Of a stretch of DNA of 64,000 nucleotides, positions 55,239 to 60,778 are shown piece by piece. Below the pieces are notes generated by a model. That model was not told the DNA's origin, did not search any database, and worked only from the letters and a program-made list of their open reading frames with translations. Every line of letters begins with the position of its first letter. Position 1 is the stretch's first letter. Where the stretch lies: NCBI GenBank assembly GCA_947499555.1, contig CANMOU010000006.1:62001-126000 (forward strand). The letters run 5' to 3'. The DNA is from an uncultured Roseovarius sp. GTDB taxonomy: Bacteria; Pseudomonadota; Alphaproteobacteria; Rhodobacterales; Rhodobacteraceae. The position numbers were made by a program, and so were the translations under genes.

Positions 55239-55712
55239 TTATTCAGCCGCCTGTGCCGCGGCAACGGTCAGCGAACCGCCCGCTTTCTCGACCGCCTCGA
55301 TGGCCGATTTCGACGCACCGGTCACTTCCAGCTTGAGCTTGGCTGTTACCTCGCCCTTGGCCAGAACGCGCACACCGTCAAGCTTGCGCCGCACCAGACC
55401 GCTTTCGACAAGCACGTCTTCGGTGATGGCTTTCTTGGCATCCAGCTTCTTCGCATCGACGAATTTCTGGATCAGACCCAGGTTCACAACGGCAAATTTC
55501 TTGCGGTTTGGCTTGTTAAAGCCACGCTTTGGCAGCCGTTGGTAAAGCGGCATTTGCCCGCCTTCATACCCACCGATGGCCACACCTGAACGGGACTTCT
55601 GACCTTTGATACCGCGACCGGCGGTTTTGCCCATACCAGAGCCGGGACCACGGCCAACGCGTTTCTTGCGTTTCGTGGCGCCGGGATTGTCGCGCAATTC
55701 ATTGAGTTTCAT
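55239..55712 (-). CDS. rplO: 50S ribosomal protein L15
   Basis: A 157-residue ribosomal protein, first gene of the downstream half of the split spc cluster. It begins [20 protein letters not shown] and continues with [20 protein letters not shown], then [19 protein letters not shown]. The C-terminal ~25 residues end in an Ala-rich tail. GGAGAAGCG precedes the ATG at 55712. Normally it follows rpmD directly; here about 5 kb intervenes and it has its own promoter candidate upstream. Confidence 0.97.
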
Positions 55713-55806
55713 ATCGCTTCTCCTAAGCCGGATGTGACCCCCGAAGCGTAACGGGCCAACCACGGCATTTCTTGATTTGAGTCGTGTGATCTTTGACCAC
55801 CGGGGG

Positions 55807-55835
55807 CGTATAGACCCGAACCGCCATCTGATCAA
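55807..55835 (-). promoter_or_regulatory. Candidate sigma-70 promoter for rplO-secY-adk-rpsM-rpsK-rpoA-rplQ
   Basis: On the minus strand TTGATC (plus-strand 55830-55835) and TATACG (55807-55812) are spaced by exactly 17 bases, close to the consensus TTGACA-17-TATAAT. It lies ~100 bases upstream of the rplO start, beyond the stop of the CBU_0592-type gene. It would restart transcription of the essential genes downstream of the insert. Confidence 0.6.
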
Positions 55836-55844
55836 GAGCGAAGG

Positions 55845-56228
55845 CTACTGCAATCGCGCCTGTGGCCCGACGGGCTCTCGCCCGCTGACAAAAGTCGGCG
55901 TCGGGCTCTTGGCGACACGCAGGCCCGGCATGCCATCCACAACACCTTGCGCCCGTACAAACCGCCGGCGCCGTCGCCAGACACCACAAAGCGACATGAC
56001 GATATAAAAGCCCTGTATGAGGGCAGAGCTCAGATTGAAATCCACGCTCAGCGACACCATCACACAGGACGCAGCACAGAAGTTCAGGAGGAAATACACC
56101 GGGGTCGAGCTGGTCAGACGTCCCGTGCACAGGGCGAAAAAACCCAGCACATAAATCGAAACGCCAACCAGCCCCACCGCGCGGCACACAAACACACCGT
56201 CAATTGTCGAAACATCGTACCCAATCAT
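55845..56228 (-). CDS. CBU_0592-type small membrane protein
   Basis: A 127-residue membrane protein. Three helices are visible: VCRAVGLVGVSIYVLGFFAL, then TPVYFLLNFCAASCVMVSLS, then LSSALIQGFYIVMSLCGVW, ending in a run of arginines and a ~40-residue polar tail. The pattern (NLLGA-like NFCAAS, then FNLSSALIQ) matches the CBU_0592 membrane protein family. The start ATG at 56228 follows AGGAG at a rather long 13-base distance; GTG 56279 is an alternative. It sits in the spc insert, on the ribosomal strand, divergent from the retron. Confidence 0.65.
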   Translation of the reverse strand: MIGYDVSTIDGVFVCRAVGLVGVSIYVLGFFALCTGRLTSSTPVYFLLNFCAASCVMVSLSVDFNLSSALIQGFYIVMSLCGVWRRRRRFVRAQGVVDGMPGLRVAKSPTPTFVSGREPVGPQARLQ

Positions 56229-56387
56229 ACCACGCACCCGGCTCCTTACAGGCGCGCCCCGGCCGAAATTGCCTGACACGCCATGACCTTAGCCTGAATG
56301 GCCCGCGTCAACGCCGCGTGAGAATAATCGTTAATGCTTCGTAAAAAGCATCGGGCAGGACGTTAAAATTCATAGGAGAAAATCACG

Positions 56388-56639
56388 ATGGCGACTGCCC
56401 CTTTCCCGAACGTGCCCGGTATTCTGCCTTGCCAGCGCCCCCTTCTCTTTGCATCATCACCCCACAACGGCGGCCTCTGGATAACCCGCTGCATCATGCT
56501 AAGGGTTGGGCGGGGCATCCCCGCCTTCGACTTTGACCAAGCCAAACACGGCGCAACCGTAACTGGGCTTCACCCAGGACCGGTTACGCAGATCACAGAT
56601 AAGCAGAGGCCGTTCGTTGTATCCGGTCACGCCCAATGA
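56388..56639 (+). CDS. Doubtful 83-codon frame overlapping the retron RNA
   Basis: An open frame with a convincing ribosome site (AGGAG 9-13 bases before ATG 56388) and a stop that overlaps the reverse transcriptase start (ATGA), which is typical of a coupled upstream gene. Against coding: the translated sequence has no recognisable family, uses rare codons (AGG, ATA, CTA), and covers the paired arms and hairpins of the msr-msd candidate. It may be a leader frame whose translation sets RT expression, or simply chance. It is kept as low confidence. Confidence 0.3.
   Translation: MATAPFPNVPGILPCQRPLLFASSPHNGGLWITRCIMLRVGRGIPAFDFDQAKHGATVTGLHPGPVTQITDKQRPFVVSGHAQ
56464..56620 (+). ncRNA. Candidate retron msr-msd RNA
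   Basis: This region lies directly upstream of the retron reverse transcriptase. Arm a1 CGGCCTCTG (56471-56479) pairs with a2 CAGAGGCCG (56604-56612), and a further ACAACG (56464-56469) pairs with CGTTGT (56615-56620) across a small bulge. Inside are an msr-like hairpin AACCC/GGGTT (56483-56487 with 56503-56507), a tight hairpin GGCGGGG/CCCCGCC with a CAT loop (56509-56525), and an msd-like long hairpin (56551-56589: GCG, AACCG and CTGGG arms, loop CTTCA). This order matches retron RNAs. The branching G is probably 56479 or 56480, but this is not certain. Confidence 0.7.
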
Positions 56640-57940
56640 ATAGAAAGCACCTGGCCGAAAACCTCGCACAAAGCCTGTGCCATGCAGACTGGTCGAAAGA
56701 AACTCTGCAAGCCACGCTTGCGCGCAGGCTTCCCCCGCCCCTGCGCAAGATGGCAGGGGCGCTCAGCAATGCCTTGGTTCAGGACATCGTCAAACCCTAT
56801 GCCCCTGCCCCGGCGATTGTCGCGAAAGCGCTTTTGGGAAACCCGAATTTCGAGCGCCTCTTCAGGTTTTGTCAGAAAAACAATGTCTGGCCCGACCCAG
56901 ACCTGACACCTCCTGCGATGGCCCCTCTGCGCGCCTTCGCTGATTTGAACCTGCCGCAACTCACCACGCCGGATGCCCTTGCCGATTGGGCAGGTCTGCC
57001 AGCCAGTCAACTCGCCTACCTGTCGGATGTTCAGAACCGCTTCGAGGAACATGGCGACACGGCTGTCAACCATTACCACTACCTCATGAAGCCAAAAGCT
57101 TCAGGCGCCCTGCGGGTGATCGAAGCACCCAAAAAGCGCCTCAAGACCGTCCAGCGCCGCATTCTGGCCGGCATCCTCAACCAGATACCACCCCATCCAG
57201 ACAGCTTTGGCTTTGTCAGGGGGCGCGATTGCCTGTCCGGGGCGAGCCGCCATGCAGCCGAAGAGACCCTGCTGTGTTTTGATCTGAAGGATTTCTTTCC
57301 CTCCGTCGGCTATGCGCGTGTGTTCGGGATGTTCAGATCTCTTGGATACCCACACACTGTAGCGCGTCACCTGTCGGCACTTTGCACAAACGTGACGCCG
57401 TCACGCATCATCGAACAGTTGCGCCCCGAAGAGCGCCCAGTTTTCAGAATGCCGCATCTGCCGCAAGGCGCGCCCACCTCCCCCGCGCTTGCCAACCATG
57501 CCGCGTTCACACTCGACAAACGTCTCTCTGCCCTGGCGAGACGTCTGAATGCCAATTTCAGCCGTTACGCCGATGACATGGCCTTTTCCGGAGACCGCTT
57601 CATCGCGCGGGTTTTGCTGCGCGCCGTGCCCGCAATCATCGAGGAAGAAGGGTTCGTGCTCAATCCGGCCAAAACCCGTCTGGCGTCCAAAGCCGCAAGA
57701 CAATCCGTCACCGGCATTGTGGTCAACGAACACCTCAACATCGACCGTAGCACGTATGACACCCTGAAAGCTGTCATTCACGCTTGCGGCAAACCAGACG
57801 ACGACCGGCTCCATGATCCGGCCTTCTGCGCGTCGCTTATCGGTCGGCTGGACTGGTGCGAACGCGTGAACTCCGGACGCGGCAAGAAGCTCAAGACGCT
57901 GCTGTCCAAAAGCATCGCCCGCAAATCTGCAGGCCGCTAG
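56636..57940 (+). CDS. Retron-type reverse transcriptase
   Basis: A 434-residue reverse transcriptase. It has an extra helical N-terminal ~105 residues, then the polymerase core: RT1 region SGALRVIEAPKKRLKTVQRR; GFVRGRDCLSGASRH (197-206 area, corresponding to the retron NAxxH element with G for N); FDLKDFFPS (215-223); LPQGAPTSP (275-283); catalytic YADD (311-314); and the retron-specific VTG (358-360), which contacts msr RNA. No maturase or endonuclease domain is present, which excludes a group II intron. The ATG overlaps the stop of a short upstream frame. No toxin-like effector is fused to it. Confidence 0.93.
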   Translation: MNRKHLAENLAQSLCHADWSKETLQATLARRLPPPLRKMAGALSNALVQDIVKPYAPAPAIVAKALLGNPNFERLFRFCQKNNVWPDPDLTPPAMAPLRAFADLNLPQLTTPDALADWAGLPASQLAYLSDVQNRFEEHGDTAVNHYHYLMKPKASGALRVIEAPKKRLKTVQRRILAGILNQIPPHPDSFGFVRGRDCLSGASRHAAEETLLCFDLKDFFPSVGYARVFGMFRSLGYPHTVARHLSALCTNVTPSRIIEQLRPEERPVFRMPHLPQGAPTSPALANHAAFTLDKRLSALARRLNANFSRYADDMAFSGDRFIARVLLRAVPAIIEEEGFVLNPAKTRLASKAARQSVTGIVVNEHLNIDRSTYDTLKAVIHACGKPDDDRLHDPAFCASLIGRLDWCERVNSGRGKKLKTLLSKSIARKSAGR

Positions 57941-58054
57941 AGACCAATTGGCCCGTTTCACCGCAGGCGCGCAGGTTCGGCTTACGAGCTCAGCAAACTC
58001 TTGGCCGACAGGAAAACCTTCTTCGCAGCGACCTCAGCGGTCGAAGATCAGGGG

Positions 58055-58174
58055 TCAATCTCCGCCTTCAAATGAACCGGAACTGTATGCCCCCAGGGGA
58101 TCCTCTGACTGATCACAACCAGCCGGAAGGGCCAAAATGGCGATCAGTAAAAATAAAACTCTGTGTGTGCGCAT
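58055..58174 (-). CDS. 39-residue lipoprotein
   Basis: Reads as a signal peptide with lipobox: MRTHRVLFLLIAILALPAGC, then DQSEDPLGAYSSGSFEGGD, so the mature peptide would be only 20 residues, lipid-anchored at Cys20. Asp follows the Cys, which in enterobacteria favours retention in the inner membrane. GAGG lies 7-10 bases before the ATG at 58174. It resembles entericidin-like mini-lipoproteins in size only. It is convergent with the reverse transcriptase gene, 114 bases away. The function is unknown. Confidence 0.6.
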   Translation of the reverse strand: MRTHRVLFLLIAILALPAGCDQSEDPLGAYSSGSFEGGD

Positions 58175-58390
58175 GAATAACCTCAATTCTTTCGAATATG
58201 ATGAGCCTAAACCTCTTTGGAACATTCGCGCAACAGTTGTGGTGGTCCCTTTCCGAACCAACCCAGGCCCAAACCGAAAAACCGCCTTTCGGATCGCGGC
58301 TGAACCATCCTGCGCAAATCTTAACGAATGCAAAACGCCTCGCGCGCCGGGCTAACAAGTCATCTCCGGCGGCCTCTGACCGACCCGGCA

Positions 58391-58430
58391 CCGACGCAAT
58401 ACCGACGTGATACCGACGCAATACCGACGT
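58391..58430. repeat. Tandem 11-bp repeat, ~3.6 copies
   Basis: Units CCGACGCAATA, CCGACGTGATA, CCGACGCAATA and a final CCGACGT. They are of the same family as the array at 25588-25638. It lies in the 315-base gap (58175-58489) between the lipoprotein gene start and the ectC stop; nothing else was recognised in that gap. Confidence 0.85.
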
Positions 58431-58489
58431 CTGGATCCCAGCAAAATAAGGGCATTAACCTTTGCGTTGCCAAAACGGACCACAACCGC

Positions 58490-58873
58490 CTACTCAGGCG
58501 CTGCATAGCTCCCGTCGGCATCATGGGTTTCCTGCCCGCTCAGGGCCGGGGTGAAGATGCAGATGAACCGCAAATCCGTCTCCGCACGAATGATATGCGG
58601 GTCATGCATATCAAGCACATACATCACCCCCGGCTCCAGCCGCCAGACCTGCCCTGTTTCGGCATTCTCAACCTCCCCTGTCCCCTCGATGCAATAATTC
58701 GCCTCGATATGGTTCTTGTAGTGCAGATGCTGGGTGCTTCCCGCTTTGACAATCGTGTCATGAAAAGAATAGCCCAGCCTGTCTCGTGCCAGTAAAATCC
58801 GCCTGCTTTCAAAGGCTTCTCCTGTCGCATGGTCTGCAGTGCCGAGCACGTCAGAGAGCGTTTTGACCAACAT
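58490..58873 (-). CDS. ectC: Ectoine synthase, orphan copy
   Basis: A 127-residue cupin enzyme closing N-gamma-acetyl-diaminobutyrate to ectoine, a compatible solute. The family length is ~128-130. Metal residues expected at E57, Y85 and H93 are present in HYKNHIEANYCIEG and VMYVLDMHDPH. R25, T40, Y52, H55, C105, F107, E115 and H117 are also kept, while positions 21 and 38 are Phe and His, where I recall Trp and Asn in the best-studied enzyme. No ectA, ectB or ask gene is adjacent. It may use imported or promiscuous substrate, or have another ligand. It is divergent from the VWA pair. Confidence 0.9.
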   Translation of the reverse strand: MLVKTLSDVLGTADHATGEAFESRRILLARDRLGYSFHDTIVKAGSTQHLHYKNHIEANYCIEGTGEVENAETGQVWRLEPGVMYVLDMHDPHIIRAETDLRFICIFTPALSGQETHDADGSYAAPE

Positions 58874-58934
58874 CTTTCAGGTCCTCGCGGTGGTTTGAGT
58901 TGATTTTGGAAGTCGTGAGATATGTTATGGCAGC

Positions 58935-59633
58935 ATGAGCCGTAGAAAGACAATCCTGGCGACCTGCCTTGCCACCAGCCTGACCTTCAGCGGTCCGGCC
59001 TACGCCGCCGACTGCGCCCGCGACGCGATGCTCGTCTTCGATGGCTCGGCATCCATGGCCGAGCTGGGCCTGAACCTGTCCGATCCCAAACGCATTGATG
59101 ATGCCCGCACCGCGCTGCAACTGGCCATGCCGCAGATCGCGCCGGTCCGGCGCATCGGCCTTCTGACCTACGGCCCGGGCCCCGAGAATTCATGCGAAGG
59201 GATCAACCTCAAATTCACACCCGTCGCCAATGCCGCGCAACCCATTTTGGAGGCCATAGAGCTGTTGGATCCCAATGGCTTAACACCTCTGACCGAAGCT
59301 GTCCGCACGGCGGCGGATGTGCTGAATTACCGCGCCGAGCCGGGCATTGTCGTACTGGTGACCGATGGAAACGAAACCTGCGGTGGACGGCCCTGTGCCT
59401 TGGGCGCAGAGCTGGCCGCCACCGCGCGTGACCTGACCGTGCATGTCATCGGCTTTCGTGTCGTGACTGACCGCTTTGCCTGGGACAGCCCCGAGGCCAA
59501 TGTCTACCCCGATGGCATTTCAGTCGCCAAATGTCTCTCGGACCAGACCGGCGGCATGTATGTCTCAACCGAGACCATCGATGAGCTGTCACAGGCGCTT
59601 CGCCGCACCCTGGGATGTGCACTCATTGGGTAA
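58935..59633 (+). CDS. Secreted VWA-domain protein, first of a tandem pair
   Basis: A 232-residue exported protein. The signal peptide covers ~1-24 (TILATCLATSLTFSGPAYAA). The rest is a von Willebrand A domain with a complete MIDAS: DGSAS (D-x-S-x-S), Thr in GLTPLTEAV, and Asp in VLVTDGNET. Paired cysteines (ADCARD, NSCEG, ETCGGRPC, KCLSD, LGCALIG) suggest disulfides. The second copy begins within its last codons. Both are probably metal-dependent binding proteins at the envelope; the ligand is unknown. Confidence 0.82.
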   Translation: MSRRKTILATCLATSLTFSGPAYAADCARDAMLVFDGSASMAELGLNLSDPKRIDDARTALQLAMPQIAPVRRIGLLTYGPGPENSCEGINLKFTPVANAAQPILEAIELLDPNGLTPLTEAVRTAADVLNYRAEPGIVVLVTDGNETCGGRPCALGAELAATARDLTVHVIGFRVVTDRFAWDSPEANVYPDGISVAKCLSDQTGGMYVSTETIDELSQALRRTLGCALIG

Positions 59634-60315
59634 GCCCTTGAAAGTCCTGACATCGATAGGCCTTGCGCTTTGCCTGGCCACGCAAAGCGCGGCACAGACC
59701 TGCAGCCGGGATGCCATGTTGGTCTTCGACGGCTCCGCCTCCATGGCCGAGCTTGGCTTCGGTGCCAGCGGCCCCTCTCGCATAGAAGAGGCCCGCGCGG
59801 CGGTGGCCGAAGTCATGCCCCAGGTCGCACCCGTGCGACGGATCGGGCTTTTGACCTATGGGCCCGGCGCGGCAGACAGCTGCCGTGGCATCCAGGTCAA
59901 GTTTGCGCCGGCGGAAAATGCAGACAGGGCTGTGATTGCCGAGGTTGAGGCGCTCAGCCCCGCAGGCCTCACACCGCTGACCGATGCCGTGCGCGAGGCG
60001 GCTGAGGTGCTGAATTACCGCACCAGCGCGGGCATTATCGTGCTGGTCACGGACGGCTCGGAAACCTGTCGCGGCCAGCCCTGCCGCCTGGGTCGGGACC
60101 TGGCGGCATCAGGCCGCGATCTGACCGTGCATATCATCGGCTTCAGGCTGGTCTTCGACCCGTTTTCCTGGAATAGCGTCGAGGCATTTCAAGCGGCGGC
60201 CGCGGATGTGCAATGCCTGGCCGATCAGACGGGTGGAAGCTATGTCACGACCGAGACGGTGGATGAACTGGCCGATGCTTTGCGCCGGACATTGGGGTGC
60301 GCGCTGGTGGGGTGA
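59626..60315 (+). CDS. Secreted VWA-domain protein, second of a tandem pair
   Basis: A 229-residue paralogue of the preceding gene. No ATG is available; the start is probably TTG 59626 overlapping the previous stop (TTGGGTAA), or TTG 59638. A signal peptide follows (VLTSIGLALCLATQSAAQ). The MIDAS residues are the same: DGSAS, GLTPLTDAV, VTDGSET. Large identical blocks with the first copy (MLVFDGSASMAELG, VRRIGLLTYGPG, LNYR) show tandem duplication, with divergence enough to imply both are kept by selection. Confidence 0.8.
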   Translation: MGKPLKVLTSIGLALCLATQSAAQTCSRDAMLVFDGSASMAELGFGASGPSRIEEARAAVAEVMPQVAPVRRIGLLTYGPGAADSCRGIQVKFAPAENADRAVIAEVEALSPAGLTPLTDAVREAAEVLNYRTSAGIIVLVTDGSETCRGQPCRLGRDLAASGRDLTVHIIGFRLVFDPFSWNSVEAFQAAAADVQCLADQTGGSYVTTETVDELADALRRTLGCALVG

Positions 60316-60337
60316 GGTCGGCCATTAGACTAGTAGG

Positions 60338-60652
60338 TCAAAAACCACCGGCAAATCTGAACATTACAACGGAGTACGCTGCCAAAATCCAAAAGGCGGC
60401 AACTATCCATCTTCGCTCACTTGCCGGTATAACCGCGCCAGTCTTGCGCTCAACAGTTGCACACAATTCCTTGAAGATCTTCAAACTTATTAATGAGATA
60501 ACGGTAACAAGCAGCCACGGCCAAGAGAGCACCTCCAACACGCGATCTTCGTCTGGCCGAAGGAACAGAGCCCGCGCTAAGCCGGCGAATAGTGCCTCAG
60601 AAACATCATCAATCACCAAAGTAGCTACCTTCGGGTAGAGCTTGGTCCACAA
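60338..60652 (-). CDS. Hypothetical two-helix membrane protein
   Basis: A 104-residue frame in a locally AT-richer stretch. It contains an amphipathic N-terminal region (VIDDVSEALFAGLARALFLR) and two hydrophobic helices (WPWLLVTVISLISLKIF and WIVAAFWILAAYSVVMF). No ATG start exists; TTG 60652 is used, with a stop not far upstream, so the gene could be a remnant or begin at another weak codon. It lies downstream of the rpmD terminator hairpins. No family is recognised. Confidence 0.4.
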   Translation of the reverse strand: MWTKLYPKVATLVIDDVSEALFAGLARALFLRPDEDRVLEVLSWPWLLVTVISLISLKIFKELCATVERKTGAVIPASERRWIVAAFWILAAYSVVMFRFAGGF

Positions 60653-60690
60653 TCCAAAAATATGCTTTCACGGTCAGTATGCAATAAGAA

Positions 60691-60773
60691 CACCCCGGCC
60701 ATCTCTGACCGGGGTGATTGTTAGATCACCGGAAACTTCAAAAGTTTCCGGTCAGTTTTCTTTTCAAGAAAAC
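60691..60773 (-). terminator. Three consecutive hairpins after rpmD
   Basis: In minus-strand order: GTTTTCTT/AAGAAAAC (60755-60773, 3-base loop), ACCGGAAACTT/AAGTTTCCGGT (60728-60752, 3-base loop), and CACCCCGG/CCGGGGTG (60691-60716, 10-base loop), the last followed by TTCTTATT. The last works as a rho-independent terminator. Together they end the upstream half of the spc cluster. Confidence 0.78.
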
Positions 60774-60778
60774 GGCGC

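What the first reader, a model, noticed from the sequence alone, without database searches (positions are those of the whole stretch)
56464..57940. A retron with a recognisable msr-msd RNA inside the ribosomal spc cluster
Seen: a reverse transcriptase with YADD, LPQGAPTSP and VTG motifs, preceded by paired arms a1/a2 (9 bp, plus 6 bp across a bulge) enclosing two msr-like hairpins and a 39-base msd-like hairpin ending 24 bases before a2-RT spacing begins. Known: retron RTs recognise msr through the VTG region and make branched RNA-DNA; studied retrons act in phage defence with an effector. Inferred: this is an active retron of an alphaproteobacterial branch with a ~105-residue N-terminal extension and a G in place of N in the NAxxH element. 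No known effector gene is next to it, so either the RT's own N-terminal part, the divergent membrane protein or the mini-lipoprotein serves, or the role is different.
Basis: partly seen in the sequence, partly recalled or inferred. Interest (0 to 1): 0.88.

Follow-up and report, generated by a model that had tools for sequence, protein, structure and literature searches.

The report
Solitary retron with conserved RNA partner
A bacterium carries, between two ribosomal-protein genes, an intact gene pair (a reverse transcriptase and the folded RNA it should copy into DNA) of a widespread retron lineage for which no partner toxin gene was found nearby, unlike the studied anti-phage retrons.

Summary
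In an alignment of 30 loci, 28 of 32 pairs show compensatory changes; 91.6% of cells pair, against 35-50% when slid. A covariance model finds the RNA beside the reverse transcriptase (RT) in 75 of 80 related loci, 48 of 53 outside its training set. In 198 genomes of the host's family it occurs in 6, each time beside this RT; it is absent from 67 viral loci with other RTs. The predicted priming guanosine, G56480, is kept in 71 of 72 loci. The RT best matches PADLOC's RT_other and RT_outgroup, with dN/dS 0.12. It is a genuine retron.

It appears solitary. The membrane-protein gene also sits in two relatives lacking the retron; the mini-lipoprotein is missing from the relative with the retron at the same site. 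No family recurs in more than 5 of 130 flanking ORFs. msDNA synthesis is inferred; function is open. The spc-cluster site is shared by two species and is not a family rule. Novelty: a new variant of a known kind.

The parts
56429..56457 (+). promoter-like TTGCCA-N17-CATCAT, 6 bases before a1
   Evidence: A TTG(G/C/A)C(A/T)-N16..18-(C/T)A(T/C)NNT pattern placed just before the RNA occurs in 23 of 72 loci, the window among them. Consensus match only; no background count was made.
56464..56479 (+). arm a1
   Evidence: MFE fold. Helix 1: all 11 modelled pairs have changes on both sides in 30 loci, 86.6% of cells paired; 96.4% in 72 loci on a model-fitted alignment.
56480..56480 (+). predicted priming (branch) guanosine, first base 3' of a1
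   Evidence: G in 71 of 72 loci; 44 of 45 rows not named in the model's training set. Role inferred from known retrons.
56483..56507 (+). msr hairpin 1 (variable)
   Evidence: MFE fold; variable in length and sequence among relatives; not among the pairs tested for covariation.
56508..56526 (+). msr hairpin 2, GGGG-NNN-CCCC core
   Evidence: GGGG/CCCC in 30 of 30 loci; helix 99.3% paired in 72 loci.
56551..56589 (+). msd hairpin (template of the RT-DNA)
   Evidence: MFE fold; helices 3 and 4, all 13 pairs with changes on both sides in 30 loci.
56603..56603 (+). predicted first templating base, next to a2
   Evidence: G in 69 of 72 loci; role inferred.
56604..56620 (+). arm a2
   Evidence: As for a1.
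56636..57940 (+). retron-type reverse transcriptase, 434 aa, with about 105 residues before the part shared with most other retron RT profiles
   Evidence: RVT_1 2.3e-20; PADLOC RT_other 1.5e-121 over residues 3-424, RT_outgroup 8.6e-115; dN/dS 0.12 against the 74%-identical copy.

Best explanation
This is an intact, solitary retron: one transcription unit made of an msr-msd RNA and its reverse transcriptase. The RT binds the folded RNA, primes from the 2'-OH of G56480 and copies the msd from about G56603 back towards 56527-56550, leaving an RNA-linked single-stranded DNA of roughly 55-75 nt bound to the RT. [Shown: conserved RNA fold, conserved candidate priming G, RT with catalytic motifs under purifying selection, near-constant RNA-RT pairing. 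Inferred: transcription as one unit, synthesis, priming chemistry, product length.] No effector gene was found that belongs to the locus. My most likely reading of function is that the RT-RNA-DNA particle still works as a sensor or holding complex, as in tripartite retrons, but acts through its own N-terminal region or a host protein encoded elsewhere. I give about 45% to a defence or stress-arrest role of that kind, 25% to a non-defence regulatory role, and 30% to something else or unknown. In this genus it looks like a settled chromosomal resident (two species share the site), while the family as a whole is gained or lost patchily.
For: RNA fold and covariation. Model R1 hits 75 of 80 related loci (48 of 53 outside training, counting two same-record pairs as trained) and 10 of 10 further full-length homologues (some of them trained or the same records). 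It gives none at E up to 1 in 28 other-RT or fragment loci, 8 further RT loci (XIII-like ones among them) or 7 retron-free spc sites. Genome-wide, 6 of 198 genomes hit, each beside this RT; in G138 the RT gene is cut by the contig end. Priming G 71 of 72. PADLOC RT_other and RT_outgroup match 71 of 71 aligned RTs. dN/dS 0.12 whole and 0.16 for the first 140 codons, window against L002. Same-site copy in G032 and retron-free sites in G008 and G055. RT GC3 0.68 against 0.65-0.76 for eight nearby genes. No recurrent partner.
Against: msDNA was not observed. Region X lacks the N of NAxxH (also substituted in the known retron RT-Mxa2). The effector of tripartite defence retrons is missing. Distribution is patchy: near-full-length homologues in 4 of 60 genus genomes and 8 of 295 family genomes, own genome counted in both, which suits a dispensable defence element better than housekeeping. 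R1 missed L100, L109 and L115 (wrong strand only) and the Tsukamurella relative L261. A member with a weak RNA match lies on a 46.8-kb Dietzia plasmid, so the family is not purely chromosomal.
Confidence: 0.8

Rival explanations
1. An ordinary tripartite defence retron whose effector is one of the neighbours in this window (membrane protein, lipoprotein, ectoine-synthase-like protein or VWA proteins).
For: Retrons are typically encoded alongside effector genes (PMC8867640, passages). Unknown small ORFs flank the RT.
Against: The membrane-protein, ectC-like and VWA genes are all present in two relatives without the retron, and the lipoprotein ORF has no match in G032, which has it. None matches PADLOC at E up to 1. 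Other loci have unrelated neighbours.
Confidence: 0.06
2. The RT's N-terminal region (about residues 1-105) is itself the effector or the docking part for a host target, making this a fused one-protein retron.
For: Present in 71 of 71 aligned members (137-167 residues before Y147) and covered by PADLOC's RT_other profile. Constrained between window and L002.
Against: It is the least conserved part (mean pairwise identity 24% in 1-50 and 18% in 51-90, against 51-53% in 141-370). Its dN/dS in the closer pair L053-L068 is 0.29, twice that of the whole RT. No convincing match: Pfam one member at 0.005, PDB best 0.029, PHROGs one member at 0.009. Myxococcal retron RTs also have extended N-termini of unknown function (PMC6868368, passages).
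Confidence: 0.35
3. The RNA-DNA product has a cellular, non-defence role (regulation, stress or anaerobic physiology).
For: Housekeeping settings in some loci: spc cluster here, EttA-like gene within 2.5 kb in 7 loci. No place covering 80% of the RT in any phage record, and only other RTs without the RNA in 67 viral loci. A role of msDNA in intestinal colonization has been reported (PMC4569332, listing and start of abstract only).
Against: Patchy presence within genus and family.
Confidence: 0.25
4. A dead or decaying retron remnant.
For: No effector found; reduced region X.
Against: Open 434-codon frame, dN/dS 0.12, intact catalytic and RNA elements, promoter-like sequence.
Confidence: 0.03

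Closest known systems
PADLOC retron classes RT_other (PDLC02949) and RT_outgroup (PDLC03740)
   Same: Best and near-full-length match of the window RT (residues 3-424), and matched by 71 of 71 aligned RTs.
   Different: The library's text gives these RT profiles no effector. The RNA described here has no Rfam 15 match.
Type XIII retron RTs (PADLOC RT_XIII)
   Same: Third-best profile (9.3e-91), also matched by 71 of 71 aligned RTs; XIII-like RTs also have a long N-terminal part.
   Different: The match starts at residue 102. Three XIII-like RTs from two myxobacterial genomes branch outside the clade, and R1 finds no RNA in their loci.
Myxobacterial retrons Mx162/Sa163/Mx65 (RT-Mxa1, RT-Sau1, RT-Mxa2)
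   Same: Extended RT N-terminus (RT-Mxa1, -Sau1, -Mxa2); host-like codon use and vertical inheritance (Mx162, Sa163); a substituted N in NAxxH (RT-Mxa2) (PMC6868368, passages).
   Different: No authentic Mx162 sequence was compared. Two XIII-like RTs found in a Pyxidicoccus genome, which also holds a member of the present clade (L101), are separate from it.
Retron-Eco1 (Ec86), Eco2 (Ec67), Ec78 and other solved retron RTs
   Same: Best PDB sequence matches, 2.9e-31 for 7v9u over residues 155-389.
   Different: Those studied systems have fused or adjacent effectors (recalled for Ec86 and Ec78; Eco2 in the abstract of PMC12405507); here none was found. The N-terminal part has no convincing PDB counterpart.

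Membership tests
Retron (RT + msr-msd RNA) | RT with catalytic YxDD and retron region Y (VTG) | tested here: met
   YADD and VTG in the window; in 71 aligned RTs DD 71, V/L/I 70, T/A 65, G 69 at the VTG columns.
Retron (RT + msr-msd RNA) | Region X NAxxH | tested here: inconclusive
   GASRH here; N 4 of 71, A 66, H 71. NAxxH was in 14 of 16 validated retron RTs, with N substituted in the other two (PMC6868368, passages).
Retron (RT + msr-msd RNA) | a1/a2 inverted repeats enclosing msr and msd upstream of the RT | tested here: met
   Fold and covariation; model hits in 75 of 80 loci.
Retron (RT + msr-msd RNA) | Conserved priming guanosine next to a1 | tested here: met
   G56480, 71 of 72. Context TGGA here, commonly AAG(C/A) in the clade; known contexts include TAGC, CAGC and CAGA (PMC6868368, passages). 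That this G primes is inferred.
Retron (RT + msr-msd RNA) | Makes branched RNA-linked DNA (msDNA) | not testable with these tools
   Needs isolation of msDNA from cells.
Tripartite anti-phage retron | Adjacent or fused effector | tested here: not met
   No known effector domain in the RT and no recurrent neighbour in 130 scanned flanking ORFs. A novel effector in the N-terminal part is not excluded.
PADLOC RT_other / RT_outgroup | Best profile match over full length | tested here: met
   405 and 382 bits; 71 of 71 aligned RTs match.
PADLOC retron type XIII | Best profile match and shared RNA | tested here: not met
   303 bits, residues 102-427; R1 absent from three XIII-like loci.
Group II intron RT | TIGR04416 above cut-off | tested here: not met
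   41.6 bits against a cut-off of 300.

The most novel reading that the evidence does not exclude
A large, ancient class of effector-free retrons, mostly chromosomal and absent from the viral sets searched, in which one conserved RNA and one RT with a private N-terminal domain form the whole system across at least six phyla, acting through the RT's own N-terminus or a core host protein instead of a dedicated toxin.
Probability: 0.4. Interest if true: 0.75.

Novelty: new variant of a known kind. Interest (0 to 1): 0.55.

Why it matters
Retrons are now read mainly as tripartite toxin-antitoxin defence. A lineage that keeps RNA and RT together across six phyla, with a catalytic RT under purifying selection and no recurrent partner gene, makes the old question of what msDNA does without an effector directly testable. 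The covariance model and the conserved priming G also give a way to find and annotate these elements, for which Rfam 15 gave no match. It could supply compact one-protein RT-DNA producers from non-enteric hosts.

Tried and rejected
Rfam, gathering threshold over the window and permissive threshold over 56300-58100: no match. uORF 56388-56639 as a gene overlapping the RNA: its tblastn match in the G032 region (L151) is in two overlapping pieces in different frames, so the similarity is that of the RNA; rejected. Neighbours as effectors: rejected. 'Retron linked to translation genes' (spc cluster, EttA, QueA, an RluA-family synthase, a CCA-enzyme relative and RtcB seen next to some RTs): two further batches of ten neighbours gave mixed functions (mechanosensitive channel, aminotransferase, hydrolases, RuvB, urocanase, DUF3375 and others), so it is not pursued; no formal control was run. 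Phage or plasmid carriage: no phage record covers 80% of the query (30 records matched, 10 listed); 67 viral loci are other RTs, 26-37% identical, without the RNA; of 182 plasmid records matched (15 listed) the best are Burkholderia replicons of 0.9-1.3 Mb, and one relative with a weak RNA match is on a 46.8-kb Dietzia plasmid. Literature: nine searches listed no paper that I recognised as describing this clade's RNA; I opened passages of six papers only. The two surveys most likely to hold it (Mestre 2020, Khan 2024) are not held, so I do not claim it is unpublished.

Full report
Observation. The ORF 56636-57940 (+) encodes a 434-residue reverse transcriptase with LPQGAPTSP, YADD and VTG. Pfam finds RVT_1 only. 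PADLOC ranks it RT_other (1.5e-121, residues 3-424), RT_outgroup (8.6e-115), then RT_XIII (9.3e-91, residues 102-427); the best solved relatives by sequence are retron RTs such as Ec86.

Is the RNA real? I aligned the upstream regions of 30 loci, the window among them; their RTs range from 74% down to 37% identity with the window's. RNAalifold recovers a1/a2, the GGGG-CCCC hairpin and the two-part msd stem. Of those 32 pairs, 28 have changes on both sides, 91.6% of 958 cells are paired, and sliding the partners gives 35-50%; no shuffle of 500 reaches any observed value. The structure was derived from the same alignment, which favours it in the slide control, but a covariation score of 0.59 against 0.10-0.17 is a wide margin. 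A covariance model (R1) was then tried on the window and 80 loci fetched by RT similarity. It hit on the + strand just upstream of the RT in 75 of 80 loci (E from 6e-27 to 0.003; L101 and L112 match only model positions 48-146) and in the window. Of the 80 loci, 25 were in the training alignment and two more (L043, L059) appear to be the same records as trained rows, which leaves 48 of 53 found. Misses: L044 and L097, where the contig starts in the RT; L100 and L109; and L115, with a weak hit on the wrong strand only. A few weaker hits lie on the opposite strand of the palindromic msd hairpin. One search was given 72 sources (window, L002 and 70 of the 75 loci; L048, L080, L088, L101 and L112 left out) and made alignment A7. 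In its 45 rows not named in training, 95.8% of 1423 cells pair and the priming G is present in 44; this alignment is fitted to the model, so those figures lean towards the structure.

Specificity. R1 hits 10 of 10 further full-length homologues, some of them trained. It gives nothing at E up to 1 in the other 43 loci of that call: 28 other-RT or fragment loci found in family and genus genomes, 8 further RT loci (type XIII-like among them), and 7 retron-free spc-cluster sites. Over 198 genomes of the window's family, searched with Infernal's stricter filters, it hits six, and each hit lies beside this RT: G000, G220, G225, G230 and G158, plus G138, where the RT gene runs off the contig end. In 67 viral loci with related RTs it gives none at E up to 0.1. 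RNA and RT are thus almost always found together in what was searched. Exceptions are L100, L109 and L115, and the Tsukamurella relative L261 with no RNA match; the Dietzia relative L263 matches weakly at 28.6 bits.

Anatomy. The first base after a1, G56480, is G in 71 of 72 loci, and G56603, the base before a2, in 69 of 72. G56480 sits where known retrons have the priming guanosine (known anatomy, PMC6868368 passages); its role here, and that of G56603 as first template base, are inferred. C56547 and G56598 are in 72 of 72, with no role that I know. A TTG-C(A/T)-N16..18-hexamer pattern lies just before a1 in 23 of 72 loci, the window among them, without a background count. The RT start, chosen by a mechanical rule that itself demands a start no more than 30 nt before the RNA model's end, lies between -24 and +37 nt of that end in 72 of 75 loci; L080, L088 and L119 lie further off. 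The ORFs are 428-468 aa in 70 of 75; L048 is broken at 120 codons, L083 runs off its contig, and L056, L080 and L119 come out shorter by the rule.

Kinship. In a quick ML tree the clade's rows group by phylum far better than shuffled labels (6 changes, least possible 5, shuffled mean 17.4; Planctomycetota alone need 3). R1-bearing members are, by record titles and many of them metagenome bins, in Pseudomonadota, Acidobacteriota, Planctomycetota, Myxococcota, Gemmatimonadota and Actinomycetota. Two fragmentary outgroup rows, L033 and L035, fell inside the clade on long branches, and 34 of 81 inner forks are drawn open, so fine order should not be trusted. The window RT pairs with L002 (same genus). 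G014, a genome of the same genus group, has the contig length of record NZ_CANLER010000001.1, an uncultured Roseovarius, so the host is probably a Roseovarius (inference).

Site. G032 carries the retron at the same place: rplO, CBU_0592-type membrane gene, retron, ectC-like gene, two VWA genes, rpmD. G008 and G055 lack the retron. Their DNA matches the window up to 56247 and again from about 58379; in G008 a CDGSH-like ORF (by eye, recalled) and a Rieske-oxygenase-like ORF (NCBIfam hits below cut-off) lie in between. So the membrane gene is not tied to the retron, and the spc gap is a local variable site. No relative among the 80 loci has the tested ribosomal or secY genes, the ectC-like, CBU_0592-type or VWA gene in its fetched DNA at E 1e-10. 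In a sister Rhodobacteraceae group an EttA-like ABC-F gene lies within 2.5 kb downstream in 7 of 8 loci (L055, L063, L058, L061, L057, L060, L059; not L056), 63-130 bp away in the first four; the gene was checked as EttA by NCBIfam in L055, L058 and L063.

No effector. Clustering ORFs within 4 kb of the RT gave, in the 40 largest clusters printed, mostly overlapping-frame artefacts and taxon-local synteny; two broad groups recur, an ABC-ATPase group in 15 loci (the EttA genes among them) and a sensor or GGDEF-like group in 10, at scattered distances and on both strands. Of 75 loci with a downstream ORF, 25 have one in the same direction within 150 nt (ORFs picked mechanically). Of 130 nearest flanking ORFs scanned (proteins over 600 aa and three loci left out), no PADLOC family matches more than 5 and no Pfam family more than 4. 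Single defence-type neighbours exist, such as a DUF3375 (JetA-like) protein beside L113. The N-terminal part has no convincing match in Pfam, PDB or PHROGs.

Constraint. Window against L002 dN/dS is 0.12 for the RT and 0.16 for its first 140 codons, with synonymous sites near saturation. The closer pair L053-L068 gives 0.15 and 0.29; for the whole RT, L090-L095 gives 0.09 and L107-L118 0.26. GC3 of the RT is 0.68 against 0.65-0.76 for eight nearby genes.

Reading. The anatomy is that of a working retron lacking the third component. Retrons that seem to lack proximal effectors are already noted in print (PMC8867640, passages), so the kind is known. What is added is the covarying RNA of this clade, its close coupling to one RT lineage across six phyla, the absence of recurrent partners, and the tested exclusion of the window's neighbours. 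I could not read Mestre 2020 or Khan 2024, so priority of the RNA is not claimed. Function remains inference: a defence or arrest particle acting through its own N-terminus or a host protein is my leading guess, with a regulatory role next.

Noticed in passing
window 55704-60778: The spc ribosomal cluster is split between rpmD and rplO by about 5 kb of unrelated genes. The gap is about 0.4 kb in G034 (L156) and holds ectC/VWA-like genes without the retron in G027 and G014 (L155, L157).
   Followed up: partly
L152 3512-3706 and 5633-6010 (G008); L153: In two retron-free relatives a second insert beside the ectC-like gene is flanked by a repeated 3' end of that gene; in G008 glycosyltransferase- and methyltransferase-like ORFs (by eye) lie between.
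   Followed up: partly
window 58935-60315: Two tandem VWA-domain protein genes, about 61% alike as proteins when each is compared with the other's copy in G032, next to an ectoine-synthase-like cupin gene.
   Followed up: no
L055, L057-L061, L063: An EttA-like ABC-F gene lies within 2.5 kb downstream of the RT in 7 loci (78-100% identical by tblastn; only a part in L059) of a sister Rhodobacteraceae group.
   Followed up: partly
G353 (Pyxidicoccus; L101, L174, L180): One myxobacterial genome holds three retron-type RTs: a member of this clade and two XIII-like ones.
   Followed up: partly
L261 (NZ_LR134447.1): A record labelled Tsukamurella 'plasmid 5' carries polA and rpsA near the RT, so it is probably a chromosome piece. 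No R1 RNA was found there at E up to 1.
   Followed up: no
L006 / L192 (G040): A 143-codon open frame matching only RT residues 353-425 at 52% identity, with no RNA match better than E 0.43: perhaps a remnant of a lost copy.
   Followed up: partly
window 56547 and 56598: C56547 and G56598, both unpaired in the consensus, are invariant in 72 of 72 loci without a known role.
   Followed up: no
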